Shown here: one piece after another, positions 4,052-64,000 of the stretch
Layout: each line of letters starts with the position of its first letter
Position numbering within the stretch: position 1 is the stretch's first letter
Assembly (NCBI GenBank): GCA_030655755.1
Contig: JAUSOQ010000043.1
Location: 124,001-188,000, forward strand
Length of the DNA: 64,000 nucleotides
From: Coriobacteriia bacterium
GTDB lineage: Bacteria > Actinomycetota > Coriobacteriia > Anaerosomatales > Anaerosomataceae
Direction of reading: 5' to 3'
Notes under the pieces: model-generated
What the model was told of the DNA's origin: nothing
Database searches by the model: none
Seen by the model: only the letters and a program-made list of their open reading frames with translations
Program-made: the position numbers and the translations under genes

Positions 4052-6871
<2,820 letters not shown>

Positions 6872-6881
6872 CGAACCCGGT

Positions 6882-6918
6882 CACCTGCCCGCCCGACGTG
6901 TTTCCGGACGGGCAGGTG
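6882..6918 (+). repeat. Inverted repeat after ileS
   Basis: A 10-bp perfect inverted repeat (CACCTGCCCG at 6882-6891, CGGGCAGGTG at 6909-6918) starts 10 bases after the ileS stop. It lacks a T-tract and is followed directly by TATAAT at 6920-6925, so it may be part of a stem near a promoter or an mRNA 3' structure. Confidence 0.55.
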
Positions 6919-6942
6919 GTATAATCCCTTCAAGACCCTTGA

Positions 6943-6964
6943 CGCCCCGCATGGGGCGCTTTTT
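6943..6964 (+). terminator. Rho-independent terminator between ileS and traR-like gene
   Basis: CGCCCC at 6943-6948 pairs with GGGGCG at 6953-6958 across a GCAT loop, followed by CTTTTT. This is a standard intrinsic terminator for ileS transcripts. A TATAAT box at 6920-6925 lies just before it, so a short attenuated leader for the downstream gene is also possible. Confidence 0.75.
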
Positions 6965-6997
6965 AGATATCGCCTTCGAATCGAGGGAGGCTTGGCA

Positions 6998-7363
6998 ATG
7001 GACAACAAGAGGCTTGGCGCACTGAAGACGCGGCTCGAAGACGAGCGCGTGCGGTTGGTCGCTGAGATAGAGGAGTACGAACGGGACGGCCAGGAGGCTT
7101 TATCGGACGTGTCGGGCGAGAACAACTACCGTGACCACATGGCCGACCAGGGTTCTGCGACCTTTGCTCGCGAACTCGGTATGTCGCTGGAGGACAACGC
7201 CCGCGAGACGTTGGCGCAGGTGGACGGCGCGCTGGGACGGGTCGCGAGCGGCGAGTACGGGACGTGCAAACGCTGTGGCGCGAAGATCCCTGTCGAACGA
7301 CTCGAGGCTGTTCCGTGGGCCGATCTGTGCATAGCCTGCAAAGAGCGGGAGGAGAGCAGGTAG
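6998..7363 (+). CDS. TraR/DksA-type C4 zinc finger protein
   Basis: The 121-aa protein has an N-terminal coiled-coil helix pair (about residues 5-80) and a C-terminal four-cysteine zinc finger, CKRCGAKIPVERL ending in CIAC (about residues 90-115), as in DksA/TraR/YteA proteins that can enter the RNA polymerase secondary channel. The acidic residues at the coiled-coil tip typical of DksA are not clearly conserved, so a ppGpp-cofactor role is not assured. ATG 6998 has GGGAGG 8 nt upstream. It is followed with overlap by lspA, a common pairing in Gram-positive genomes. Confidence 0.88.
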   Translation: MDNKRLGALKTRLEDERVRLVAEIEEYERDGQEALSDVSGENNYRDHMADQGSATFARELGMSLEDNARETLAQVDGALGRVASGEYGTCKRCGAKIPVERLEAVPWADLCIACKEREESR

Positions 7364-7899
7364 TGTACCGCCGCGCCGGACTGGCGTTCGCGGCGACGGT
7401 GATCGTGGTGCTCGCGTTAGACCAAGCGTCGAAGGCCTATGTGCGGGCCAACATGGTGCTCGGTCGCTCGATACCTGTCGTCTCTGACGTGTTCAGTCTC
7501 ACTCACATCAACAACAAGGGCGCGGCCTTCGGGCTGCTACCCGGCCAGCTGGGCTTCTTCATCGCTGTCGCACTCGTCGTGCTCGGCGCCATTGGGCTGA
7601 TCTGGTGGCGTGTGCATCCGCGGCGTTGGTTCGCCGTGCACGGACTCGGGCTGATCGCTGCCGGTGCGCTCGGCAATCTCATCGATAGGGTCGCCGCAGG
7701 TCAGGTCACGGACTTCTTCGAGATCCACGGATGGCCGGTCTTCAATGTGGCCGACGCCGCGCTCGACGTCGGTGTCGCCATCCTCATCGTCTGGTTGCTC
7801 TTCTCGAAAGAGGCAGACAGGGCCTTTAAGGGTGCAGTGGTGGAGGACTCGACTATTGATGCAGAGGCGTGGGAACAAGCGGGAGAGGACGCCTCGTGA
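7363..7899 (+). CDS. lspA: Lipoprotein signal peptidase II
   Basis: This inner-membrane aspartyl protease cleaves the signal peptide of prolipoproteins after lipidation. The 178-aa product shows four hydrophobic segments and the family motifs DQASKAYV near the N-terminus, NNKGAAFGLL, GALGNLIDRV and FNVADAALDVG; the Asp residues of the last two form the catalytic pair. The GTG start overlaps the last base of the upstream TAG, indicating coupling. The C-terminus carries an extra acidic tail of about 30 residues. Several lipoproteins in this window (lipobox proteins near 34.1, 40.7 and 43.7 kb) would be its substrates. Confidence 0.95.
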   Translation: MYRRAGLAFAATVIVVLALDQASKAYVRANMVLGRSIPVVSDVFSLTHINNKGAAFGLLPGQLGFFIAVALVVLGAIGLIWWRVHPRRWFAVHGLGLIAAGALGNLIDRVAAGQVTDFFEIHGWPVFNVADAALDVGVAILIVWLLFSKEADRAFKGAVVEDSTIDAEAWEQAGEDAS

Positions 7900-8900
7900 G
7901 CGATATGTATGAGCACCTGGTGTCCGCCGAGGAGGCCGGGCAGCGACTCGACAAGCTGCTCGGGGAGTTCGAGTTCCTGCCGAGTCGCTCTATGGCGGCG
8001 AAACTCATCGAGAAGGGTTGCGTGCACGTGGACGGCGACCCCGCTTCCAAACGGCACGCTGTCCGAGCCGGCGAGCAGATCGAGGTGTTCATGCCACGAC
8101 GTGAGCCGAGCACGCTTATCCCGGAACAGATACCGCTCGACATCCGCTACGAGGACAGCCACCTCATCGTGTTATCGAAGCCCGATGACATGGTCGTGCA
8201 TCCCGCTCACGGTCATTGGACAGGCACACTGGTGCATGCGTTGCTCGCGCACAGCAAGGACCTGGGCACGCTTGCGGGGGAAGAACGCCCGGGTATCGTG
8301 CACCGTCTCGACAAGGACACGACCGGCCTGATGATGGTAGCCAAAGACGATGCGACGCAGGCTGCTCTTTCCGAGGCGATCAAGATACGTGCGATCGACC
8401 GCCGCTACGTGACGCTTGTACACGGTTACATCACTCCGGACTCAGGGATCGTGGACGCTCCTCTTGGCAGGCATCCCAAGGACAGGATGCGGATGGCCGT
8501 CACGGACGGGCCGTCGAGCAAGCAGGCCGTGACCACGTTTCGCGTGCTGGAGCGCTACATGGCGGGTGTCCGCGACGACGGTTACACGCTCGTGGAGTGC
8601 AAGCTCTACACGGGCCGCACGCACCAGATCCGCGTGCACATGGCCTACATCGATCATCCGGTGGTGGGCGACCAGATGTACGGGCGCAATCACCCTAAGG
8701 CCGACCTTGGCCTGACACGGCAGTTCCTGCACTCATACAAGCTCGAACTCACACACCCCATCACAGGAGAGCAGATATCGTTGCGTGACCCACTCCCTGA
8801 AGATCTGGCGAGCCGATTGAGAGCTCTTGAGCCCGAGTCGATGGGCCGCACAGAAGCGGGCGAGGAAGTCCTTCCGGTCGTTTTGCCGCCGAGCAGCTAG
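7896..8900 (+). CDS. rluD: RluD-type 23S rRNA pseudouridine synthase
   Basis: The 334-aa enzyme would isomerise uridines in 23S rRNA. An S4 RNA-binding domain (about residues 8-75, with RLDKLLGEFEFLPSRS) precedes the RluA/RluD catalytic domain. The active-site Asp lies in HRLDKDTTGLMMVAK, and GRTHQIRVHM further on is a conserved family motif. The GTG start overlaps the lspA stop by 4 bp (GTGA). RluD versus RluA/RluC specificity is inferred from the S4 domain and from the lspA-rluD neighbourhood. Confidence 0.92.
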   Translation: MSDMYEHLVSAEEAGQRLDKLLGEFEFLPSRSMAAKLIEKGCVHVDGDPASKRHAVRAGEQIEVFMPRREPSTLIPEQIPLDIRYEDSHLIVLSKPDDMVVHPAHGHWTGTLVHALLAHSKDLGTLAGEERPGIVHRLDKDTTGLMMVAKDDATQAALSEAIKIRAIDRRYVTLVHGYITPDSGIVDAPLGRHPKDRMRMAVTDGPSSKQAVTTFRVLERYMAGVRDDGYTLVECKLYTGRTHQIRVHMAYIDHPVVGDQMYGRNHPKADLGLTRQFLHSYKLELTHPITGEQISLRDPLPEDLASRLRALEPESMGRTEAGEEVLPVVLPPSS

Positions 8901-39925: not shown

Positions 39926-40058
39926 TCGTTCCACAGCATCTCCACATTGCCAACTGATACGCATCCGGTAATCATGCGCAAGATGGTGCGCTGATGCGGC
40001 TTGAACCCCTGGGCACAGAGCCGTAGTATGGTTACTCGCTGCCAAGCAGGCAGTACGT
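39926..40058. other. Intergenic region left of the tRNA fragment
   Basis: No gene is supported here. The last 16 bases (GCAGGCAGTACG, 40047-40058) resemble those just before the intact tRNA-Pro gene (GCAGGCAGAACG, 55427-55438), so the duplicated region reaches a little upstream of the tRNA. Confidence 0.5.
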
Positions 40059-40101
40059 CGGGCTGTAGCGCAGTTTGGTAGCGCACTTGACTGGGGGTCA
40101 A
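40059..40101 (+). repeat. Truncated copy of tRNA-Pro(GGG), 5' half
   Basis: These 43 bases match the first 43 bases of the intact tRNA-Pro gene at 55443-55485 with one mismatch (A at 40067 for G). They include the acceptor 5' strand, the D-arm and the anticodon loop and stop within the 3' side of the anticodon stem, so no functional tRNA can form. It marks the left edge of the chelatase island and is probably an attachment or recombination site. Confidence 0.85.
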
Positions 40102-54065: not shown

Positions 54066-55103
54066 ATGTCATATCACAACCGAGTGACCTACCCTTTCAC
54101 GGCGATCGTTGGTCAGGAGAAGATGAGAAAGGCCCTGATTCTGAACGCGATCAACCCGAGGATAGGTGGCGTTCTGATCAGAGGCGAAAAGGGAACCGCG
54201 AAGTCTACCGCAGCCAGGGCCCTAGCGGACCTCCTTCCGGAAATCGAGGTAGTCGAGGGGTGTGTCTACGGCTGCGACCCAGCTGACATGAACGGCATGT
54301 GCGAGGAATGCAAGGAGAAGATTGCAGCCGGCTCGCAGCTGGCTTCGACTTTCAGGAAGACGCGCGTGGTCGATCTGCCAGTTAGCGCCACTGAAGATCG
54401 TGTGGTTGGGACACTCGATATCGAGCACGCGATAACAAAGGGAGAGAAGAGGTTCGAACGAGGAATCCTAGCTGAGGCGCACAGGGGCATCCTCTACGTC
54501 GACGAGGTGAATCTGCTCGACGACAGTCTCGCTGACTTGATGCTCGACACTGCGGCGATGGGCGTCAACGTGGTGGAAAGGGAGGGCGTTTCCCACTGGC
54601 ACCCCGCTCGATTCATGCTTGTGGGTACGATGAATCCCGAAGAAGGCGAGCTGCGACCGCAGCTTCTGGATCGCTTTGGCCTCTGTGTCGAAATCGAAGG
54701 CATAGCTGATGCCGATCTCAGGGTGGAAGTGATCAAGCGGCGCTCGCGATACGAGGCTGATCCAGCCGCGTTCGCCACCGAATGGGAAGAGGCCCAAGAG
54801 GCGGAACGAGGGCGAATCCTATCAGCTGCGCGGATGCTGAGTGACGTTGAGATCCCTGATGAGATGCTGCAGCTGGTCGCAACGATAGCGATAAGGACAG
54901 GGGTTCAAGGTCATCGGGCGGACATTGTCATGACGAAGACGTCCAGAACGCTCGCGGCGTACCATGGGCGCGCCGCTGTCTCAAAGGACGACGTGAGGGA
55001 AGCGGCGGATCTCACGCTGCTTCACCGCACGAGAAGGAAGCCCTTTGAGGAGATGGGCCTAGATCGCCTGCAACTCGACAAGGCCATGTCTGAAGCGTCC
55101 TAG
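54066..55103 (+). CDS. Chelatase AAA+ ATPase (ChlI type)
   Basis: A 345-aa AAA+ subunit. [20 protein letters not shown] opens the domain, Walker A is [17 protein letters not shown], Walker [20 protein letters not shown], and the same four-Cys motif [17 protein letters not shown] is present (about 65-81). It is close to the N-terminal half of the fused ChlI-ChlD gene, so the two are paralogues. ATG 54066 was chosen; it is 70 bp after the previous stop. It would form the hexamer that partners the fused ATPase. It is the last gene of the island. Confidence 0.88.
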
Positions 55104-55442
55104 AGCCCGTGTCGGTCTGACTCCCTGGACGCCACGGCCGGTGCTGTGGTTTCCTGACTGTCTGTCCGTTTCGAGATCCTTCGTTATGCCGAGTGCTTCC
55201 ACGACTGTGCAGGTGGCACTTGTCGCTGGGCGACATGTCTCCAGCCGAGGTCGAGCGGAGACTGGAGTAGGGTTGGCTCTTGGCCGCCGTGTCATGGTCC
55301 TAAGGTATCAACGAGAACGGGGCAACTCCATCGTCAGGGGATGGACACGAAGGTTGTACCGCCCCTATACTTCCCCAGGCGGCAGGAAACGCTGGCTGAT
55401 TCCCCAGCAGCCAACAGCGTTTCCGCAGGCAGAACGTATCAT
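55104..55442. other. Non-coding right end of island 1 with an inverted repeat
   Basis: No credible gene is seen in these 339 bases on either strand. A stem GGAAACGCTG (55385-55394) with CAGCGTTTCC (55415-55424) encloses a GCTG-rich loop, 18 bp before the tRNA-Pro gene. The 12 bases that follow (GCAGGCAGAACG) recur left of the tRNA fragment near 40.05 kb. The stem may be a terminator of the chelatase operon or part of an attachment site. Confidence 0.55.
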
Positions 55443-57004
<1,562 letters not shown>

Positions 57005-57008
<4 letters not shown>

Positions 57009-57469
57009 TTCTTGTCGTCCCTCGGTGCGAGGATCTGGATGTCTCCCGGCAGTTTGTCGTAGATGGAATCGTAGTAGCGTGTCGCGAAGGCGATGACTTC
57101 CTGCGCCTCTTTCTCACTCACCAGTCCCGGCTGCTCGTAGATCGTCGTGTTGCGCTTCTTCCGGAGTTTCTGCAAGCGCTTGATCATCGCGGAATCCTCG
57201 GGAAAAGCCTCTTCCATGAAACGGAAGGTGTTGTAGTGCTTGCCTTCACCCCGCGGGCGATAGCCCTGCGAGTGCATGTAAGCGATCGAGAGCTGCAGGA
57301 TGGCGTTGTAGGCGATGGCGAACGCCCAGTCCAGATCGGTCATCGTGAGCGCTTGGGCGGTGCGTGTGTCGCGCTTGGCCACGTCCAAGAGCCCTGCGAT
57401 CTCTCGCGGAGTCACTTCGACGCGCTCGACGGCGCGTTTCCTAAGAAGTTCTTCGAAGCTCATCTTCAT
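57005..57469 (-). CDS. HEPN-domain protein (toxin-like partner)
   Basis: A 154-aa helical protein of the HEPN family. The RKKRNTTIYE segment (R106 to Y111) is the place of the R-x4-6-H RNase motif, here with Tyr and no His, as in some HEPN/MNT modules. Other features are DLDWAFAIAYNAILQLSIAY and HYNTFRFMEEAF. It follows the nucleotidyltransferase gene with a 29-bp overlap and is followed by the recombinase with ATGA overlap. In known HEPN/MNT pairs the HEPN is the toxin and is AMPylated by the MNT partner. Confidence 0.82.
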
Positions 57470-58022
57470 CTCCTATGAGGAAGATCTTCGAACCGGCAAG
57501 GATGTCGGTTACGAAGGCTTGTTTGATCTTCACTCTGCCGTCCCACTCTTCCCGCGTGTAGACGGTCGGGTTGATTTCGCGGCCAATCGCCCTTTCTGCC
57601 GAGTCGACCGCTTCGTTCAAGACGTCCAACTCGACGTCGCCGATGACAAGGAGATCAACATCTGATCTCATGTCCTCGAGGTTCTTGGCGACCGATCCGT
57701 AGATGAGGGCTACTTCGACCGGACCGATATCGTCGAGCGATTCGCGCAAGAAGTCGGCAAGGCCCACCGTCTTGAAGACGATGCTCTTGAGCTCGGGGTA
57801 GATCGGGAACGCCTTGTTGGCTTGGAAGTAGCGAGTGTTCGACTCTCGCGTGCTAGTGACGAATCCGATGCCCGCGAGCTTTTTGAGTTCAGACTGCACG
57901 AGCGAAGAAGAGAGGCCCAACTCTCGGATGAGCTGGGTTTGGTAGAAGCGCTCGTCCGGATGGGTCACGAAGAGCGTCAACAGGGCCAACCGGGCCTTGG
58001 ATGTAATTAGGGTTGAAAGCAT
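57441..58022 (-). CDS. MNT-type nucleotidyltransferase with N-terminal winged helix (antitoxin-like)
   Basis: A 193-aa protein. An N-terminal winged helix (about residues 5-75, RFYQTQLIRELGLSSSLVQ) precedes a minimal nucleotidyltransferase with G109-S110 and D121-x-D123 in LIYGSVAKNLEDMRSDVDLL. MNT antitoxins neutralise HEPN toxins by transferring AMP to them. The DNA-binding fusion would add autoregulation. A symmetrical operator-like repeat (58024-58065) lies immediately in front of the start. Confidence 0.85.
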   Translation of the reverse strand: MLSTLITSKARLALLTLFVTHPDERFYQTQLIRELGLSSSLVQSELKKLAGIGFVTSTRESNTRYFQANKAFPIYPELKSIVFKTVGLADFLRESLDDIGPVEVALIYGSVAKNLEDMRSDVDLLVIGDVELDVLNEAVDSAERAIGREINPTVYTREEWDGRVKIKQAFVTDILAGSKIFLIGDEDELRRTS

Positions 58023-58023
58023 A

Positions 58024-58065
58024 GTTACCTCATTTCCGGCATAATCATGCCGATTTCATGGTAAC
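58024..58065 (-). promoter_or_regulatory. Symmetrical operator in front of the MNT-HEPN pair
   Basis: GTTACC (58024-58029) and GGTAAC (58060-58065) flank GGCAT (58038-58042) and ATGCC (58047-58051), a nested inverted repeat of 42 bp. A minus-strand -10 (TACCAT, 58058-58063) lies in its right arm and a -35 (TTGACA, 58082-58087) 18 bp away. Binding here would block transcription of the MNT gene. Confidence 0.65.
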
Positions 58066-58073
58066 TCAAGGAC

Positions 58074-58562
58074 TCAGACATTGTCAACTGTTTCGTGGTC
58101 CTGACCTGCACCTTTACGCTCTGCACCGTAGGCCGCAAGGCCTCTGATCTGGAGTCTGAAGAGCATGAACTCATCGGTTGTCCCGAAGTCGTGCGCCAGA
58201 TCGGGGAGGGCCCGGCTAGCTTGAAGCTTCTTAGTCAGCTCGATTTCCGGGATGAGCAGCCACGCTGCGAAGACGTTGGCCTGCTTCTCGTGGTAGTTGC
58301 CGAAGGAGTACGTGTTGTTCTCAAGGGTCAGATGGTTTCCCGAGTGCATCAGATGGTGCCCGATTGCGTGAGCGATGAGCTCTCGCTTGACTGCGCGGGG
58401 GAGGTCGCGTCTGACCACGATGGCATCCCCGAAGTAGACCTCTGAAAGTCGCCCGACGAGTTCTTCTTCCAAGACTATTAATCCAAGTTCGCCGGCGATC
58501 CTTTCAAGGTCAGTGCCGTGCTTAAGATAGATCCCCTCCGCCGCTTGTATCGCTTTTCTCAT
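58074..58562 (-). CDS. ImmA/IrrE-like protein with an altered HExxH motif
   Basis: A 162-aa protein of the ImmA/IrrE (COG2856) fold. The zinc site is AHAIGHHLMHSGNH; H65 and H69 are kept but position 66 is Ala where active metallopeptidases have Glu. A downstream ligand region NYHEKQANVFAAWLLIPE is present. It may therefore bind metal or its partner without cleaving. It overlaps the XRE regulator by 41 bp. In mobile elements such pairs control excision by cleaving the repressor. Confidence 0.8.
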   Translation of the reverse strand: MRKAIQAAEGIYLKHGTDLERIAGELGLIVLEEELVGRLSEVYFGDAIVVRRDLPRAVKRELIAHAIGHHLMHSGNHLTLENNTYSFGNYHEKQANVFAAWLLIPEIELTKKLQASRALPDLAHDFGTTDEFMLFRLQIRGLAAYGAERKGAGQDHETVDNV

Positions 58563-58908
58563 GTCGCCTCTTCTGCCCGCGAGCGCGGATGACCGCCTCG
58601 TAGGCTCGGATGACAGACTGCTTTTCCTCTGTCGTCATATGTGGGATCTCTTTGAACATCATCGTGAAGGCAGGGTCGTCAAGTCCGAGTGATTCGAGCT
58701 TGGCCTCGAGAAGCAAGTCGTTCATCTCTTGTTTAGTGGCTCCCAGGGCGCGGGCGAGACCTTCAAGCTTCTCAGGAGCCGGGATGAACTTCCCGATCTC
58801 GACGTCTGAGACGTAGCTTGAGGACTCGTAGCCCAAGGTCTTGGCGACCTGGGCCTGCGTCAGCCCCTGTTGGAGCCTTAGTTGTTTGATCTTCTTGCCG
58901 AATGACAT
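58522..58908 (-). CDS. XRE-family transcriptional regulator
   Basis: A 128-aa regulator. Its N-terminal helix-turn-helix has KKIKQLRLQQGLTQAQVAKT and YVSDVEIGKFIPAPEKLEGL. The C-terminal half is helical and ends RRHEKSDTSGGGDLS. ATG 58908 was chosen because the domain starts there. It is read with the ImmA-like gene and away from the 59.1-kb gene. Three similar palindromes around its promoter and the divergent one are its probable operators. Confidence 0.87.
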   Translation of the reverse strand: MSFGKKIKQLRLQQGLTQAQVAKTLGYESSSYVSDVEIGKFIPAPEKLEGLARALGATKQEMNDLLLEAKLESLGLDDPAFTMMFKEIPHMTTEEKQSVIRAYEAVIRARGQKRRHEKSDTSGGGDLS

Positions 58909-58919
58909 TGGCTGTCCCT

Positions 58920-59124
58920 CACGTATTATTACAGAACTAATGGCAATTGTAGTACCATGAAACATACCTTGTCAAGGACATTATAGCCGCTACCTGTGGA
59001 TAACTATCCACTTGACAATATCCGTAAGATTACGGTATCATGACAACTGGACTGGAGCCAGGCCGCGATCCCGCCGCCGAAGCTCCTTCTTCTTGGCCTA
59101 TCGACTCCGTAATAATACGGAGTC
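58920..59124. promoter_or_regulatory. Divergent promoter region with three CCGTAATAATACGG-like sites
   Basis: Three sites share one pattern: CACGTATTATTACAG (58920-58934), CCGTAAGATTACGG (59022-59035) and CTCCGTAATAATACGGAG (inside 59103-59124, a 9-bp perfect arm pair around ATAA). The middle one fills the spacer of a plus-strand promoter (TTGACA 59012-59017, TATCAT 59036-59041). The first lies downstream of a minus-strand promoter (TTGACA 58970-58975, TACAAT 58946-58951). The set suggests XRE binding that controls both directions. Confidence 0.7.
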
Positions 59125-59144
59125 AGGCCCTTCGGAGGCAAGTC

Positions 59145-59507
59145 ATGTTCGAGGTTTCCGCACAACACACAAGGAGGGATGACCTCGAGGCCAGTATGTC
59201 GAAGCTGGTCTCGGCCTTCCTTGCTGTGGCGGAAGATCTGGTTGCCGAAGAGCGTGGCGTGGGCGAGAGGATGTCGTGCATGTCTACTGCAGCGGTTCCT
59301 GCGGCAGACGTTGCATCACGGAGCGATACCCGAGGAACACGGGCAATCGACCGCGAGCGTCGCCTGATCCAGTCGAATGGAAGCACCGTCACAGAACCGG
59401 TGCCCGGAACCCTTGCAACAAGGTCGGCATTGCCCCTGGTTGCCAGGGACAAGGGGCCACGACAAGGGGTGCGGATCCGTGAAGAGAGGGGTGCAGAAAA
59501 GGGTTAG
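59145..59507 (+). CDS. Small protein of unknown function in island 2
   Basis: I do not recognise this 120-aa protein. ATG 59145 was chosen because CGGAGG stands 7 nt upstream and the promoter with its XRE-like site lies before it; a start at 59040 would overlap the promoter. The first 40 residues (HTRRDDLEASMSKLVSAFLA, then VAEDLVAEERG) could be helical; the rest is rich in Ala, Arg and Thr and has no motif. It may be an element-specific regulator or a decayed gene. Its stop lies in the arm of an inverted repeat. Confidence 0.45.
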   Translation: MFEVSAQHTRRDDLEASMSKLVSAFLAVAEDLVAEERGVGERMSCMSTAAVPAADVASRSDTRGTRAIDRERRLIQSNGSTVTEPVPGTLATRSALPLVARDKGPRQGVRIREERGAEKG

Positions 59508-59725
59508 GGGTGGAGATTCCAGGCGTGAATCTGCCTCTTTGAGGCAGCGCGTCGTCTGGGCTCGATGCAAGGACCGGCTGTCCCTCACATCGAACCCCGA
59601 CTTCCCGCCCTTTGGTTGCACTTCGCCCTTCCGGGCTCACCCCTCGCGGGCTCGGGGCAAAGCGCGGGAAGTCGGGCTTATCGCCCGACGACGCGAAGGA
59701 ATCTCCGGAAAGCCCTAACCCTTTT
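59497..59725. repeat. Nested inverted repeats in a non-coding segment
   Basis: Two pairs are nested. Outer: AAAAGGGTTAGGG (59497-59509) with CCCTAACCCTTTT (59713-59725). Inner: CCCGACTTCCCGC (59596-59608) with GCGGGAAGTCGGG (59664-59676). The 272 bases between the small gene and the replication-relaxation gene (59508-59779) show no credible reading frame. A replication or transfer origin is one explanation, paired terminators or transposon relic another. Confidence 0.7.
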
Positions 59726-59779
59726 CCCGACGCGGGGACGGAGACGAGGGTGACGAGAAGAGAGGAAGGAGCAGAAGCC

Positions 59780-60391
59780 ATGAGTCGAACACCACGGAAC
59801 AAGCGAGTCCTCGGGTATCCGCGGATGATTCTGCAGGAGCGCGATCGAGCGATCGTGATCGGGGTCTATGAGAACCGATTCCTGAAACGCGAGCAGATCG
59901 AGCGGCTCTTCTTCGCGACAACGTCGGCGTGCAACCAGCGCCTCGCCAAACTCTATCAGCACCGGCTGCTCGACCGGCTCTACCTTCCCGTGGATATCGG
60001 TTCGAGTCAGGCCGTCTACGCGATCGACCGGCTCGGGGCAGAACTGGTGGCCGGCCACCACGAAGTACCGGTCGCCCGGATCAACTGGCGACGGAAGCAT
60101 AACCGGGTGGAGTACTTCTTCCTCGAGCACACCGTGGGGGTCGCCGAGGTTAACGTCGCCATGCAGCTCGCGTTGCGCGAGCGTGACGACGTCCGGCTGC
60201 TGACGTGGAAGCGCGAAGCCTTCATCCATAGAGAGAAGGTGGCAGACCCTGAGGAGTGGGACCGGAAGCTCTCCCTGATCCCCGATGCCTTCTTCGGTCT
60301 TGAGGGGCTGGCTGGTCGCTCCCCAAAACCTTACGCGCTCACTATTTTGCCGCGAATCTCGCCGCAAGGCGTAGCCTTTCGGTATGCTTAA
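59780..60391 (+). pseudogene. Replication-relaxation family protein, C-terminally truncated
   Basis: A 203-aa protein whose N-terminal winged helix (LQERDRAIVIGVYENRFLKR, then RLFFATTSACNQRLAKLY) and middle match the replication-relaxation family of mobile elements. The match ends at SLIPDAFFGLEG; the last 25 residues are unrelated, so the gene appears cut near 60310 and its frame continues into foreign DNA. The ATG at 59780 follows GGAAGGAGCAG. It probably marks the broken right end of island 2. No copy of the tRNA 3' end was found beside it. Confidence 0.72.
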
Positions 60392-60427
60392 GGTCACGTC
60401 AGTCTGTTATACCTTCTGGGGGATGTC

Positions 60428-61372
60428 ATGACCGAGGTCTCGGTCCGGTGGCTACAGGACGGTGCGCTCCGCACCGGGAATCTGGACGACCTCGGCAGCA
60501 TCGGCGATTCGGCCGTCTGGATCGATATCTTAGATGCCGACCAAGTCACCCTTGAGGCTGTCTCGGCGTGGTCACCTCTTCATCCTCTTGCCATGGAGGA
60601 CTGTCTTCACTTCCCGCAGAGGCCCAAGCTCGACGTCTACGAGGACTCGACGTTCCTCATCTGGCTGATGCCCGAGTTGCCAAACGGGGCGGGCATCGTC
60701 TCGCGCGAGCTCGACGTGTTCCTCGGCAGGGAACACCTGATCACGGTGCATTCGGAAACCCTGACCGCTGTGGACAAGGTCGCAGCCCATGCCGCGGAGT
60801 ATCTGGAGCGAGGCGCTGAGTGGACTTTGCACGGCATCTTAGATCTTGCCGTGGACGGTATGTTCCCACTGGTGGACGATCTTGCCGACACCTTAGAGGG
60901 TCTCGAGGACGCCATGCTGTTGGACGCGAGGACCGAGTCCCTCGAGCAGCTTTACGGAGCGAAGCGTGCGCTGGTGCAAATACACAAGGTGGTCGGGCCG
61001 GAGCGCGATGCGATCCGTGGTCTCGCGCGACTGGAGGCGTTCGTCGCCCCGGAGGCCTACATGTACTTCCAGGATGTGGGCGATCATCTGGCCCGCGTGG
61101 CGGACTCTGTCGACACGTACCGTGAGGTCGCCTCGGGTACGATGGATATCTACCTGTCGTCGGTGAGCAACCGGATGAATCTCATCATGAAGCAGCTCAC
61201 CGTGATCGCCACGATCTTTATGCCGCTCACGCTCATTTCGGGCATATATGGGATGAACTTCCGTTACATGCCTGAGCTGGAGTGGCGCTTCGGCTACTTC
61301 GGTGTGCTCGGTGGCATGCTGCTGATCATGCTGTGGATGTTGTGGTTCTTCAAGAGGAGGAAATGGTGGTAG
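60428..61372 (+). CDS. corA: CorA-type magnesium transport protein
   Basis: A 314-aa CorA-family channel. The N-terminal cytoplasmic domain is followed by a long stalk helix. The membrane end has IATIFMPLTLISGIYGMNF, whose GMN sequence is the selectivity signature, and a second hydrophobic helix with a basic tail (FKRRKWW). It moves Mg2+ or Co2+ and some members Zn2+; cobalt uptake would be of interest beside a chelatase. ATG 60428 follows GGGGGATGTC. It overlaps pgsA by 10 bp. Confidence 0.93.
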   Translation: MTEVSVRWLQDGALRTGNLDDLGSIGDSAVWIDILDADQVTLEAVSAWSPLHPLAMEDCLHFPQRPKLDVYEDSTFLIWLMPELPNGAGIVSRELDVFLGREHLITVHSETLTAVDKVAAHAAEYLERGAEWTLHGILDLAVDGMFPLVDDLADTLEGLEDAMLLDARTESLEQLYGAKRALVQIHKVVGPERDAIRGLARLEAFVAPEAYMYFQDVGDHLARVADSVDTYREVASGTMDIYLSSVSNRMNLIMKQLTVIATIFMPLTLISGIYGMNFRYMPELEWRFGYFGVLGGMLLIMLWMLWFFKRRKWW

Positions 61373-61965
61373 AGGCAAGCCGCGAACCCGACGCATCCGG
61401 CGAGGTCGTGCACGGTAATGTCTACTCGGTAGCGAATCTCATCACCGTATTGAGGCTGGTGCTCGTGCCGTTCTTCTTCGCGGCACTCGTGTCTGACTCA
61501 CCTCGCTCGTATACGATCGCGGTGTTTCTGTACGCGATCGCCGCTTCGACGGACTGGGTTGATGGCTATATCGCTCGGCGCACGCATACGGTCACTCAGC
61601 TGGGGAAGATCATCGACCCGCTGGTGGACCGCCTGTTGCTGGCATCCGGCGTTGTCGGCCTTTATCTGGTGGGCAAGCTCCCGCTGTGGATACCTGTCGC
61701 CCTGGTCCTGCGAGACGTGTACCTGCTGTATGGCAGCTACGTTCTCGAGCGGAATGGCACTATCTTGCCGGTCACCTACATCGGGAAGGTCACGACTGCC
61801 CTCTTGATGGCCGGCTTCACGCTTCTGATCGCTTCAGGGATCTACCCCGTGCTCGAGTGTGCCGGGGACTGGTTCGTCTACGTCGGCATGGTGTTGTCGG
61901 CAACGACGGCGATCATTTACACGGGGCAAGCGCACCGTGCGCTCAAGAAAGTGCGGGCACAGTAG
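61363..61965 (+). CDS. pgsA: CDP-diacylglycerol-glycerol-3-phosphate 3-phosphatidyltransferase
   Basis: It makes phosphatidylglycerol phosphate in the membrane. The 200-aa protein has the CDP-alcohol phosphotransferase motif [20 protein letters not shown] ending LVD, i.e. DG-x2-AR-x8-G-x3-D-x3-D. Several membrane segments surround it. ATG 61363 with AGGAGGAA was chosen. Assignment to PgsA rather than another CDP-alcohol transferase rests on the N-terminal [15 protein letters not shown] pattern. Confidence 0.88.
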
Positions 61966-61982
61966 GGGGAAGGGGTCATCGG

Positions 61983-64000
61983 GTGAAAGCAGTCATCATG
62001 GCGGGCGGTGAGGGGACCCGTCTTAGGCCACTCACGAGCATGCGTCCTAAGCCGATGGTACCCATCGTCAACCAGCCGGTCATGGAGCACATCCTCGGTC
62101 TAGTCAAGCACCACGGCATGGATGAGGTAGTCGCAACACTCATGTTCATGCCGCAGGTGATCGAGGACTATTTCGGAGATGGCGAAGAGTGGGACGTGAA
62201 TATCTCGTACGCGATAGAGGAGACCCCTCTCGGCACCGCAGGCTCTGTGAAGAACGCCGAGGAAGCCCTTACCGAACCGTTCCTGGTGATCTCCGGCGAC
62301 GCTCTCACAGATATAGATCTCAGAAAGGTCATCGAGTTCCATGACTCCCATGATGGGCCGGTGACGATCGCGCTCAAGCGGGTGCCGGATCCACTCGAGT
62401 TCGGTGTTGTCATCACCGATGAGGCCGGTCGCATCACGCGTTTTTTAGAGAAGCCCTCGTGGGGGCAGGTATTCAGCGACACCATCAACACGGGTATCTA
62501 TGTACTTGACCCGATGATCTTCGACCATATCCCTGCCGACGAGCCCTATGACTTCTCGAGTCAGCTCTTCCCGGACCTGATGAAGAAGGGGTTCCCGCTC
62601 TACGGCTGTGTTGTGGATGGCTACTGGTGTGACGTGGGGAGTCTCGACTCTTACCGGCAAGTACATCGCGATATCCTTGACGACAAGACGATGATCTACG
62701 TCCCGGGCGCCAAGGCGCGCAACAGCGTGTGGGTCGGGAAAGGGGCAGATGTAGATCCGGGTGCCCATATCGGCAACAAGGTCGTGATCGGTGTGAACAC
62801 CAAGGTGCGCAGGGGCGCCGTACTGGGCGACTACACCGTCATCGGCGACAACTGTCTTATCGATTACGATGCCGATCTTCAGCACTCCATCGTTTGGAGC
62901 GACTCCTTCATCGGTGCCGGTTCTGAGCTTAAAGGCACGGTCGTGTGTCGTCGTGCGGACATCAGGGCGCGAGCACGGCTCCAACCAGGGTCGACCATCG
63001 GCGATGAGACGATGGTCGGGCACGGTGCGGTAGTCGGCAATGGCGTTCAGGTCTATCCCTACAAGCGGATCGAAGACGGTGCGACGGTCACATCCTCGCT
63101 GATATGGGAGAACACTGCGGTTCGCTCGCTGTTCGGCACCGACGGGGTTTCCGGTCTTGTCAACATCGATATCACGCCTGAGCTGGCGTTGCGTGTCGCA
63201 CAGGCTTTCGGTAGCATCCTGCCCAACAAAGCACATGTCGTCGTCTCGCGCGACTCGACTCGCGCGGCTCGCATGATAAAGCGTTCGCTTGTGGCGGGGC
63301 TGAACTCCGCGGGGATCAACGTGCGCGATCTGCGTGTCGCTTCTCCGGGTATCACACGTTTCACCACCCGGGACACGCGATGTCTGGGAGGCGTGCATGT
63401 GGCGGCTTCTCCAGATGATCCTCAGTCGCTCGAGATCAACTTCTACGACTGCGACGGCATCGAACTGCCGTCATGGGTCGAGAAGAAGGTCGAGCGTTTG
63501 TATTTCCGGCAGGAGTTTCGCAGGTCGTTCTTCGATGAGGTGGGGGAGATCATGTACCCACCGCGTGCCCTGGAGTACTACACGGCGGGACTCAACGAGG
63601 CCCTGCTGGAAAACGGGCCGATATGCCGGAAGTGCACGGTCGTCGCCGACATGGGACTGTCTCCGGCCTCGTTCGTACTTCCCATAGCGGGTGTGTCATG
63701 GGATGTGGAACTTATAGCGCTTCGGCCGTTCATCGACAGCGAGAAGACCCGCGTGACGGCGGTCGAACGTGACGCACAGTTGGAGCAGCTTGTGCGCTCG
63801 GTCGATGTCTTCCAGGCCGATTTCGGCATATCGATCGATGCGAATGCAGAGCGTGTCACATTCGTCACACCGCAAGGGCGTGTTCTGGACTACGACACCG
63901 CTTTGCACGCGATGGTCGCGCTGTGGTGTGAGACCAGCAAGACGGGGGCCGGGATCGCGGTGCCGCTTACCGCCTCTCGTGTCGTGGAACGCATAGCGGG
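61983..64000 (+). CDS. Mannose-1-phosphate guanylyltransferase / phosphomannomutase fusion, 5' part
   Basis: The gene runs off the window, with at least 672 codons. An N-terminal nucleotidyltransferase (about residues 1-230) has [20 protein letters not shown] and [17 protein letters not shown] left-handed beta-helix follows (about 245-370), and a phosphohexomutase-like region begins around 380 with [11 protein letters not shown]. The usual mutase active-site serine loop and DGDxDR metal loop are not seen in their places ([20 protein letters not shown]), so the mutase half may be inactive or structural. GTG 61983 follows GGGGGAAGGGG. It probably supplies GDP-mannose for envelope sugars. Confidence 0.85.

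What the first reader, a model, noticed from the sequence alone, without database searches (positions are those of the whole stretch)
59497..60391. Structured non-coding segment before a truncated replication-relaxation gene
Two nested inverted-repeat pairs (13 bp each) in a 272-bp gene-free region just upstream of a replication-type gene are what an origin of replication or transfer could look like. The downstream gene has lost its C-terminus, suggesting that element 2 was cut here and no longer replicates.
Basis: inference. Interest (0 to 1): 0.5.

Follow-up and report, generated by a model that had tools for sequence, protein, structure and literature searches.

The report
Folded DNA transfer site, crippled element
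The segment is a conserved, strongly folding stretch of DNA that sits beside a relaxase-type (DNA-nicking) gene in a family of tRNA-inserted mobile elements, most likely the site where such elements start moving to another cell; the copy in this genome keeps the site but has lost the presumed working half of that gene.

Summary
In detail: window 59496-59726 is a nested set of inverted repeats in a 272-bp gap, folding better than 200 of 200 shuffles, before a Replic_Relax (PF13814) gene whose homology stops after PDAFFG. It is not isolated. A covariance model found 27 copies in 14 genomes of the phylum; 14 of 27 core pairs changed on both sides, reached by 0 of 500 shuffles. In 13 of those genomes searched with an intact relative, all 16 matches (12 genomes) lie just downstream of a copy; ten copies lack the gene within their locus. 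22 of 27 copies have an XRE gene nearby; where read, a serine recombinase usually overlaps a tRNA gene. 13-bp-spaced repeats precede 20 of 26 copies. The relatives' protein is modelled as winged helix plus a domain resembling restriction and nicking endonucleases, weakly, as expected of MOBC relaxases. Best reading: an origin of transfer (oriT) of a mobilizable element, here crippled. Rivals: structured RNA, single-strand origin. G.T/A.C symmetry leans to DNA, not significantly (p 0.098). Nicking was not tested.

The parts
55443..55519 (+). tRNA-Pro(GGG); left end of the element
   Evidence: the serine recombinase gene overlaps it, as in relatives
55482..57008 (-). large serine recombinase (integrase)
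   Evidence: Resolvase, Recombinase, Zn_ribbon_recom
57005..57469 (-). HEPN-like protein (weak match), cargo
   Evidence: PF05168 E 0.0011, below its cut-off
57441..58022 (-). nucleotidyltransferase (NTP_transf_2), cargo
58074..58562 (-). Peptidase_M78 (ImmA/IrrE-like)
58522..58908 (-). XRE-type helix-turn-helix regulator
   Evidence: homologue in the locus of 22 of 27 copies, a 23rd (L082) in a larger stretch
59012..59041 (+). promoter-like TTGACA-18-TATCAT, 11 of 12; would read through small ORF, structure and relaxase gene
   Evidence: consensus match only
59145..59507 (+). small ORF with a KLVxAFLxxAEE-type segment near its N-terminus; possible accessory protein
   Evidence: no Pfam match
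59448..59456 (+). direct repeat copy 1 (GACAAGGGG)
59461..59469 (+). direct repeat copy 2, 13 bp on
59496..59509 (+). outer arm P1, 5' side
59512..59520 (+). arm P1b, 5' side
59531..59547 (+). small hairpin CTGCCTC/GAGGCAG
59550..59561 (+). arm P2, 5' side
59562..59593 (+). hairpin P3 (ends TCGATG / CATCGA)
59595..59614 (+). arm P4, 5' side
59658..59677 (+). arm P4, 3' side
59671..59689 (+). alternative local hairpin H, GTCGGGC-TTATC-GCCCGAC
   Evidence: one pair with T-A/G-C change
59683..59693 (+). arm P2, 3' side
59698..59706 (+). arm P1b, 3' side
59713..59726 (+). outer arm P1, 3' side
59780..60391 (+). Replic_Relax (MOBC-type relaxase) gene, 3' part lost: keeps the N-terminal part and PD, lacks the later conserved E, D, T, K, Y
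60300..60370 (.). zone that holds the broken right junction; the corA leader follows
   Evidence: approximate, by reading against L090

Best explanation
The segment is the cis-acting transfer origin (oriT) of an integrative mobilizable element. The relaxase-type protein (winged helix plus restriction-endonuclease-like domain) would bind the 13-bp-spaced repeats upstream and nick in or by the large branched hairpin, which forms when the DNA is single-stranded or supercoiled; one strand would then be handed to a VirD4-type coupling protein and a helper's pore. Copies that keep recombinase, regulator and folded site but no relaxase gene would be moved in trans by full elements. Shown: conserved structure, repeats, gene order, sequence families, loss of the gene's later part here. 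Inferred: binding, nicking, transfer, trans use.
For: Structure kept by compensatory change: 14 of 27 pairs, 0 of 500 shuffles (the copies are related, so cells are not independent events). In 13 genomes that have a copy, a search with an intact relative gave 16 matches in 12 genomes, all next to a copy. Ten copies have no such gene in their locus; in nine of them 2.9-7.1 kb downstream hold none: as for a site rather than a leader. Six of the seven genomes with gene-less copies also hold a gene-bearing one. 13-bp repeats in 20 of 26 loci. Conserved P, D, E, D, T, K, Y in the protein and a C-terminal model whose highest rows are BstEII, Nt.BspD6I and Cdn1, Z 8.8-8.0. PF13814 is classed as MobC relaxase in IMEs, some with VirD4 (PMC5357655 and PMC5704250, passages); MOBC relaxases are called PD-(D/E)XK-related, and TraX binds 5 direct repeats about 70-120 bp from nic (PMC12857230, passages). 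A VirD4-like gene lies 7.7 kb beyond the relaxase gene in L037.
Against: No nic site, nicking or transfer was tested. Gene-less and gene-bearing copies of one genome are not more alike than expected, in repeats (p 0.13) or core (p 0.90). All nine f41 genomes with a copy hold a gene-bearing one, so the co-residence above says little. 13 of 16 other PF13814 loci show no such structure upstream, among them L003 and L004, the nearest relatives in the window's order, so it is not a general mark of this relaxase family. G236 has a gene-less copy and no relative of the gene at E 0.001. Right ends of elements were not found, so that the VirD4-like gene belongs to the element is inferred. The fold match is weak: Foldseek gave no E under 0.001, and Z 8.8 is little above the 7-8 typical of unmatched models (note).
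Confidence: 0.57

Rival explanations
1. A structured RNA: either a leader in the mRNA of small ORF and relaxase gene that controls its expression, or a separate RNA.
For: Covarying, very stable fold on the sense strand just before a start codon; a promoter-like site upstream would read through it. L035 and L016 have a terminator-like hairpin after it (by reading). With plain RNAalifold the sense strand shows more G.T than A.C (42:10).
Against: Ten copies have no such gene behind them in their locus. Folded without G.U, G.T and A.C departure types are equal, 19:18, against 15:5 in RNase P RNA of genomes of the same families, Fisher p 0.098; plain RNAalifold also favours G.T on the antisense strand of RNase P (104:14), so its 42:10 says little. 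No Rfam match.
Confidence: 0.22
2. An origin for replication of the excised element: single-strand (lagging-strand) origin or double-strand origin.
For: Large imperfect hairpins are typical of single-strand origins (recalled); such an origin is reported for the conjugative element ICEBs1 (PMC4595007, search listing and start of abstract). It would also explain copies without the relaxase gene.
Against: The neighbouring gene is of the MOBC relaxase family, and the repeats look like a protein-bound site. None of nine genes of L036-L038 given to Pfam matched a replication initiator other than Replic_Relax.
Confidence: 0.14
3. Ends of an insertion sequence or a MITE-like repeat.
For: One copy (L052) has neither a recognised XRE gene nor a recombinase-like ORF in 10 kb.
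Against: No gene between the arms; one place in the window's genome at DNA level; 22 of 27 copies keep the XRE gene; no real match in plasmids, phages or viral contigs.
Confidence: 0.03

Closest known systems
MOBC relaxase / oriT systems (TraX of pAD1, MobC of CloDF13; PF13814 IMEs of streptococci)
   Same: PF13814 protein with PD...E.D...K-type conserved residues and a weakly matched nuclease-like fold; repeats at a distance from a structured site; VirD4-like gene in reach in L037
   Different: Here the site is a roughly 230-bp branched hairpin with 13-bp-spaced, element-specific repeats; the integrase is a serine recombinase overlapping tRNA genes; nic site unknown
IMEs without relaxase that carry an oriT (MGIs mobilized by SXT-type ICEs; PMC5704250, passages)
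   Same: Recombinase plus regulator plus candidate site, no relaxase gene recognised
   Different: Helper relaxase and transfer not shown; likeness to co-resident elements not significant
Single-strand origins (e.g. ICEBs1 Sso1; PMC4595007, listing only)
   Same: Non-coding origin in a conjugative-type element; large hairpins (recalled)
   Different: No known sso motif was tested here; repeats and neighbouring relaxase are not part of an sso

Membership tests
MOBC relaxase (PF13814) | profile match | tested here: met
   E 1e-22 for the truncated window gene; for two intact relatives
MOBC relaxase (PF13814) | PD-(D/E)XK-type residues | tested here: met
   met in relatives: P166 D167 invariant, E184 D186 T189 K198 Y202 nearly so in 28 rows; the window copy keeps only P and D. 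Catalytic role inferred
MOBC relaxase (PF13814) | restriction-endonuclease-like fold | tested here: inconclusive
   relative's C-terminal 175 aa, pLDDT 87; highest VIA rows BstEII Z 8.8, Cdn1 8.6, Nt.BspD6I 8.4, but unrelated chains reach 6.0 and Foldseek has no E under 0.001. Supportive, not decisive
oriT | nicked by relaxase and mobilizable in cis | not testable with these tools
   needs experiment
oriT of MOBC type | direct repeats as bind site at a distance from nic | tested here: inconclusive
   repeats found in 20 of 26 loci; binding and nic unknown
Integrative mobilizable element | own integrase and tRNA attachment site | tested here: met
   serine recombinase overlapping tRNA-Pro; right end not found
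Integrative mobilizable element | moved by a helper conjugative element | not testable with these tools
   needs experiment
Rfam RNA family | match to a covariance model | tested here: not met
   (55000-64000, E up to 5): only the tRNA and a chance hit elsewhere
Insertion sequence ends | inverted arms flank a transposase gene | tested here: not met
   203 bp between the outer arms, with no recognised gene

The most novel reading that the evidence does not exclude
A new class of transfer origin: a branched, covarying single-stranded DNA fold read by a restriction-endonuclease-type relaxase, with element-specific repeats as address tags, shared by full elements and by satellite elements that carry only recombinase, regulator and this site.
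Probability: 0.3. Interest if true: 0.68.

Novelty: new variant of a known kind. Interest (0 to 1): 0.5.

Why it matters
Few MOBC origins are characterised (recalled; one prototype is named in the passages). A covarying DNA fold with 27 natural copies, with and without the relaxase gene, gives a ready set for testing how such relaxases find their site and whether relaxase-less elements hitch-hike.

Tried and rejected
Searches that found nothing of use: plasmids, window segment; phages, window core and a relative's segment; plasmids with a relative's segment, one short irrelevant match; viral contigs by protein and by pattern, five hits that on reading are chance. Plasmids by protein gave four distant relatives at 24.8-26.8% identity, two covering at least 80% of the query; their upstream regions were not examined. 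Genome contigs by protein gave one distant relative, L005. The second model found only two weak hits (E 0.027 and 0.13, both on the opposite strand of the loci as held) in 37 other loci, L005 among them.

Tests against my reading: likeness of co-resident copies, repeats p 0.13, core p 0.90; structure upstream absent in 13 of 16 other PF13814 loci, the three exceptions being L005, L025 and L028 (30 shuffles per window, and one in-gene window reached z -4.8, so these z values are noisy). The strand test by plain RNAalifold was set aside because it gave excess G.T on both strands of RNase P; with G.U switched off the copies give 5 G.T and 8 A.C cells, RNase P 13 and 4. In one search the local hairpin H has one pair with changes on both sides, a number that 389 of 500 shuffles reach (its five changed cells are reached by none). 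The shuffles keep single-base content only, and the loci are related.

Rows left out: L060 (internal duplication) and A5; one search used 24 of 27 copies (L060, L069, L070 out); A5 holds 21 of 27 (L060, L063, L065, L068, L069, L070 out); one search used 26 (L069 out, contig edge). RNase P: L104 (contig edge), L118 and L119 (below Rfam's cut-off) not used. Opposite-strand echoes of the model (19 of 46 matches) are not counted as copies.

Absences in structure lists: no relaxase is named among the rows shown; this excludes nothing. Paper searches for a described structured site of this kind; no listing showed one, but I saw only passages of six papers, and the library lacks most subscription journals.

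Full report
What is there. The window holds a small mobile element that starts at a tRNA-Pro gene (55443-55519), overlapped by a large serine recombinase gene (55482-57008, minus strand). Then come a HEPN-like and a nucleotidyltransferase gene, an M78 peptidase and an XRE regulator, all on the minus strand. On the plus strand follow a small ORF, a 272-bp gap with nested inverted repeats, and a Replic_Relax gene that ends at 60391. The host-type gene corA starts at 60428.

The structure is real. The fold is beyond all 200 shuffles with RNA and with DNA energies. No Rfam family matches.

Relatives. A protein search found the gene in 3 of 149 related genomes, the own one included, and the Pfam family in 51 of 296 genomes of the phylum. 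Five of those loci (L016, L020, L021, L024, L035) have XRE gene, folded segment and Replic_Relax gene in the window's order (the last under the names L050, L048, L047, L060, L049). A covariance model of six segments from five genomes, the window's included, found 8 of 396 genomes in the phylum and 9 of 199 in the class of G211, three genomes being in both lists: 14 genomes and 27 copies, the window included. Within the window's order only this genome has it, 1 of 69, which suggests horizontal arrival (inference).

Covariation. On 21 copies, 97.0% of cells pair, and 14 of 27 pairs have changes on both sides in 62 cells, against means of 6.9 pairs and 17.2 cells in shuffles, 0 of 500 reaching the observed values; sliding the partners drops pairing to 28-42%. 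A competing local hairpin (GTCTGGC/GCCAGAC, in the window GTCGGGC/GCCCGAC) pairs in 98.4% of cells and keeps one pair through a T-A to G-C change in five copies. The two folds share strands, so the segment could switch between them (inference).

DNA or RNA. Selection on RNA tolerates G.U more than A.C. Within three groups of copies, 24 in all, folded without G.U, there are 19 G.T and 18 A.C departure types; RNase P RNA of 13 genomes of the same families gives 15 and 5. Fisher p is 0.098. On the model's own structure, 26 distinct copies give 802 Watson-Crick cells, 6 G.T, 10 A.C and 14 other. With plain RNAalifold the sense strand gives 42 G.T and 10 A.C, but that method favours G.T on either strand folded. 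All this leans to DNA and is not proof.

Repeats. Upstream of the core, 20 of 26 loci have an 8-nt word repeated at exactly 13 bp with at most one mismatch; the next best distances, 12 and 10, have 10 and 9, and shuffles average 0.97 with a maximum of 6. In most loci the best pair lies 86-108 bp before the core; in L050, L056, L072, L074 and L075 the best pair was 160-165 bp before it. The word differs between elements, and inverted copies often lie further upstream. In the window it is GACAAGGGG at 59448 and 59461.

With and without the gene. Of 27 copies, 17 are followed by the gene and 10 are not; in nine of the ten, 2.9-7.1 kb downstream were searched without finding it. In seven of these nine, an XRE gene and a recombinase-like ORF lie upstream, and the ORF overlaps a tRNA-Pro (six) or tRNA-Met (one) gene (in L125 the recombinase is in two ORFs; recombinases of relatives were named by reading). 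L052 stands alone, and L057 is at a contig end. Of five gene-bearing stretches, three recombinase ORFs overlap a tRNA (L037, L039, L040), one a predicted tmRNA (L038), and L036 shows none. In 13 genomes chosen because they have a copy, a search with an intact relative found 16 genes in 12 genomes, and each lies directly behind a copy; more distant PF13814 genes would escape that search. A small ORF with a KLVxAFLxxAEE-type motif precedes the structure in 13 of 17 gene-bearing copies by pattern (L064's match was set aside as chance), and in L048 by reading. Among ten gene-less copies the pattern gave one match that looks like chance (L052), and L054 shows a similar ORF on reading. So the folded site outlives the gene, as expected of a site used in cis.

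The protein. The intact relative is predicted with pLDDT 87: a MarR-like winged helix (Z 9.0-10.6) and a C-terminal domain (pLDDT 87) whose highest structural rows are BstEII (Z 8.8, 4.0 A over 137), Cdn1 (8.6, 4.0 A over 136) and Nt.BspD6I (8.4, 4.0 A over 140). The list below them holds many more restriction enzymes and some unrelated chains. Nearly invariant residues are P166, D167, E184, D186, T189, K198, Y202. The window copy ends its homology after PDAFFG and lacks the later ones. PF13814 proteins are classed as MobC relaxases (PMC5357655, passage); MOBC relaxases are described as PD-(D/E)XK-related, with TraX binding direct repeats away from nic (PMC12857230, passages).

The break. Another genome of the family, G003, has the 3' half of a tRNA-Pro just upstream of corA (L094), as the right attachment site of an element at this place would look. 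The window has only one copy of that tRNA 3' sequence. With the lost 3' part of the gene, the simplest history is a deletion from within the relaxase gene to the corA leader, between about 60300 and 60370. This is inference from a few genomes. The 5' half of the same tRNA lies at 40058-40101, so more than one insertion or rearrangement has used this tRNA, and the history may be less simple.

Verdict. The finding is real and its origin idea is good. I file it as a candidate oriT of a MOBC-type mobilizable element, in a defective copy, with a structured RNA and a single-strand origin as rivals.

Noticed in passing
window 40058-40101: 5' half of tRNA-Pro (97.7% over 44 bases with 55442-55485), broken at the anticodon region; suggests that the stretch between it and 55442 is another insertion at the same tRNA.
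   Followed up: partly
window 55443-57008; L037, L039, L040, L120-L125, L128: Large serine recombinase genes overlap tRNA genes (Pro, Met, Val, Ile); to my knowledge an uncommon target choice for serine recombinases (recalled).
   Followed up: partly
window 58922-58935, 59021-59035, 59106-59121: Related inverted repeats (TCCGTAA...TTACGG type) around the divergent XRE/small-ORF promoters, probable XRE operators.
   Followed up: no
L024 (= L060), hairpin region: Part of the hairpin (about 80 bp) is tandemly duplicated in this copy (by reading).
   Followed up: no
L094 1120-1164 (oriented): 3' half of tRNA-Pro just upstream of corA in another genome of the family, likely attachment-site remnant.
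   Followed up: partly
L124 (oriented) 6508-8418: Arsenic-resistance-like genes (ArsR-like, arsenate-reductase-like, transporter) directly after a gene-less copy; named by reading, not by a search.
   Followed up: no
L130 (G525:C40), about 1618 and 13169: A gene-less and a gene-bearing copy in opposite orientation about 11.5 kb apart on one contig, both with GTTTC/GAAAC-type repeats.
   Followed up: partly
L005 1460-2017: A Zixiibacteriota contig has long inverted repeats (one with CCCGACTT) before its Replic_Relax gene, not matched by the model.
   Followed up: partly
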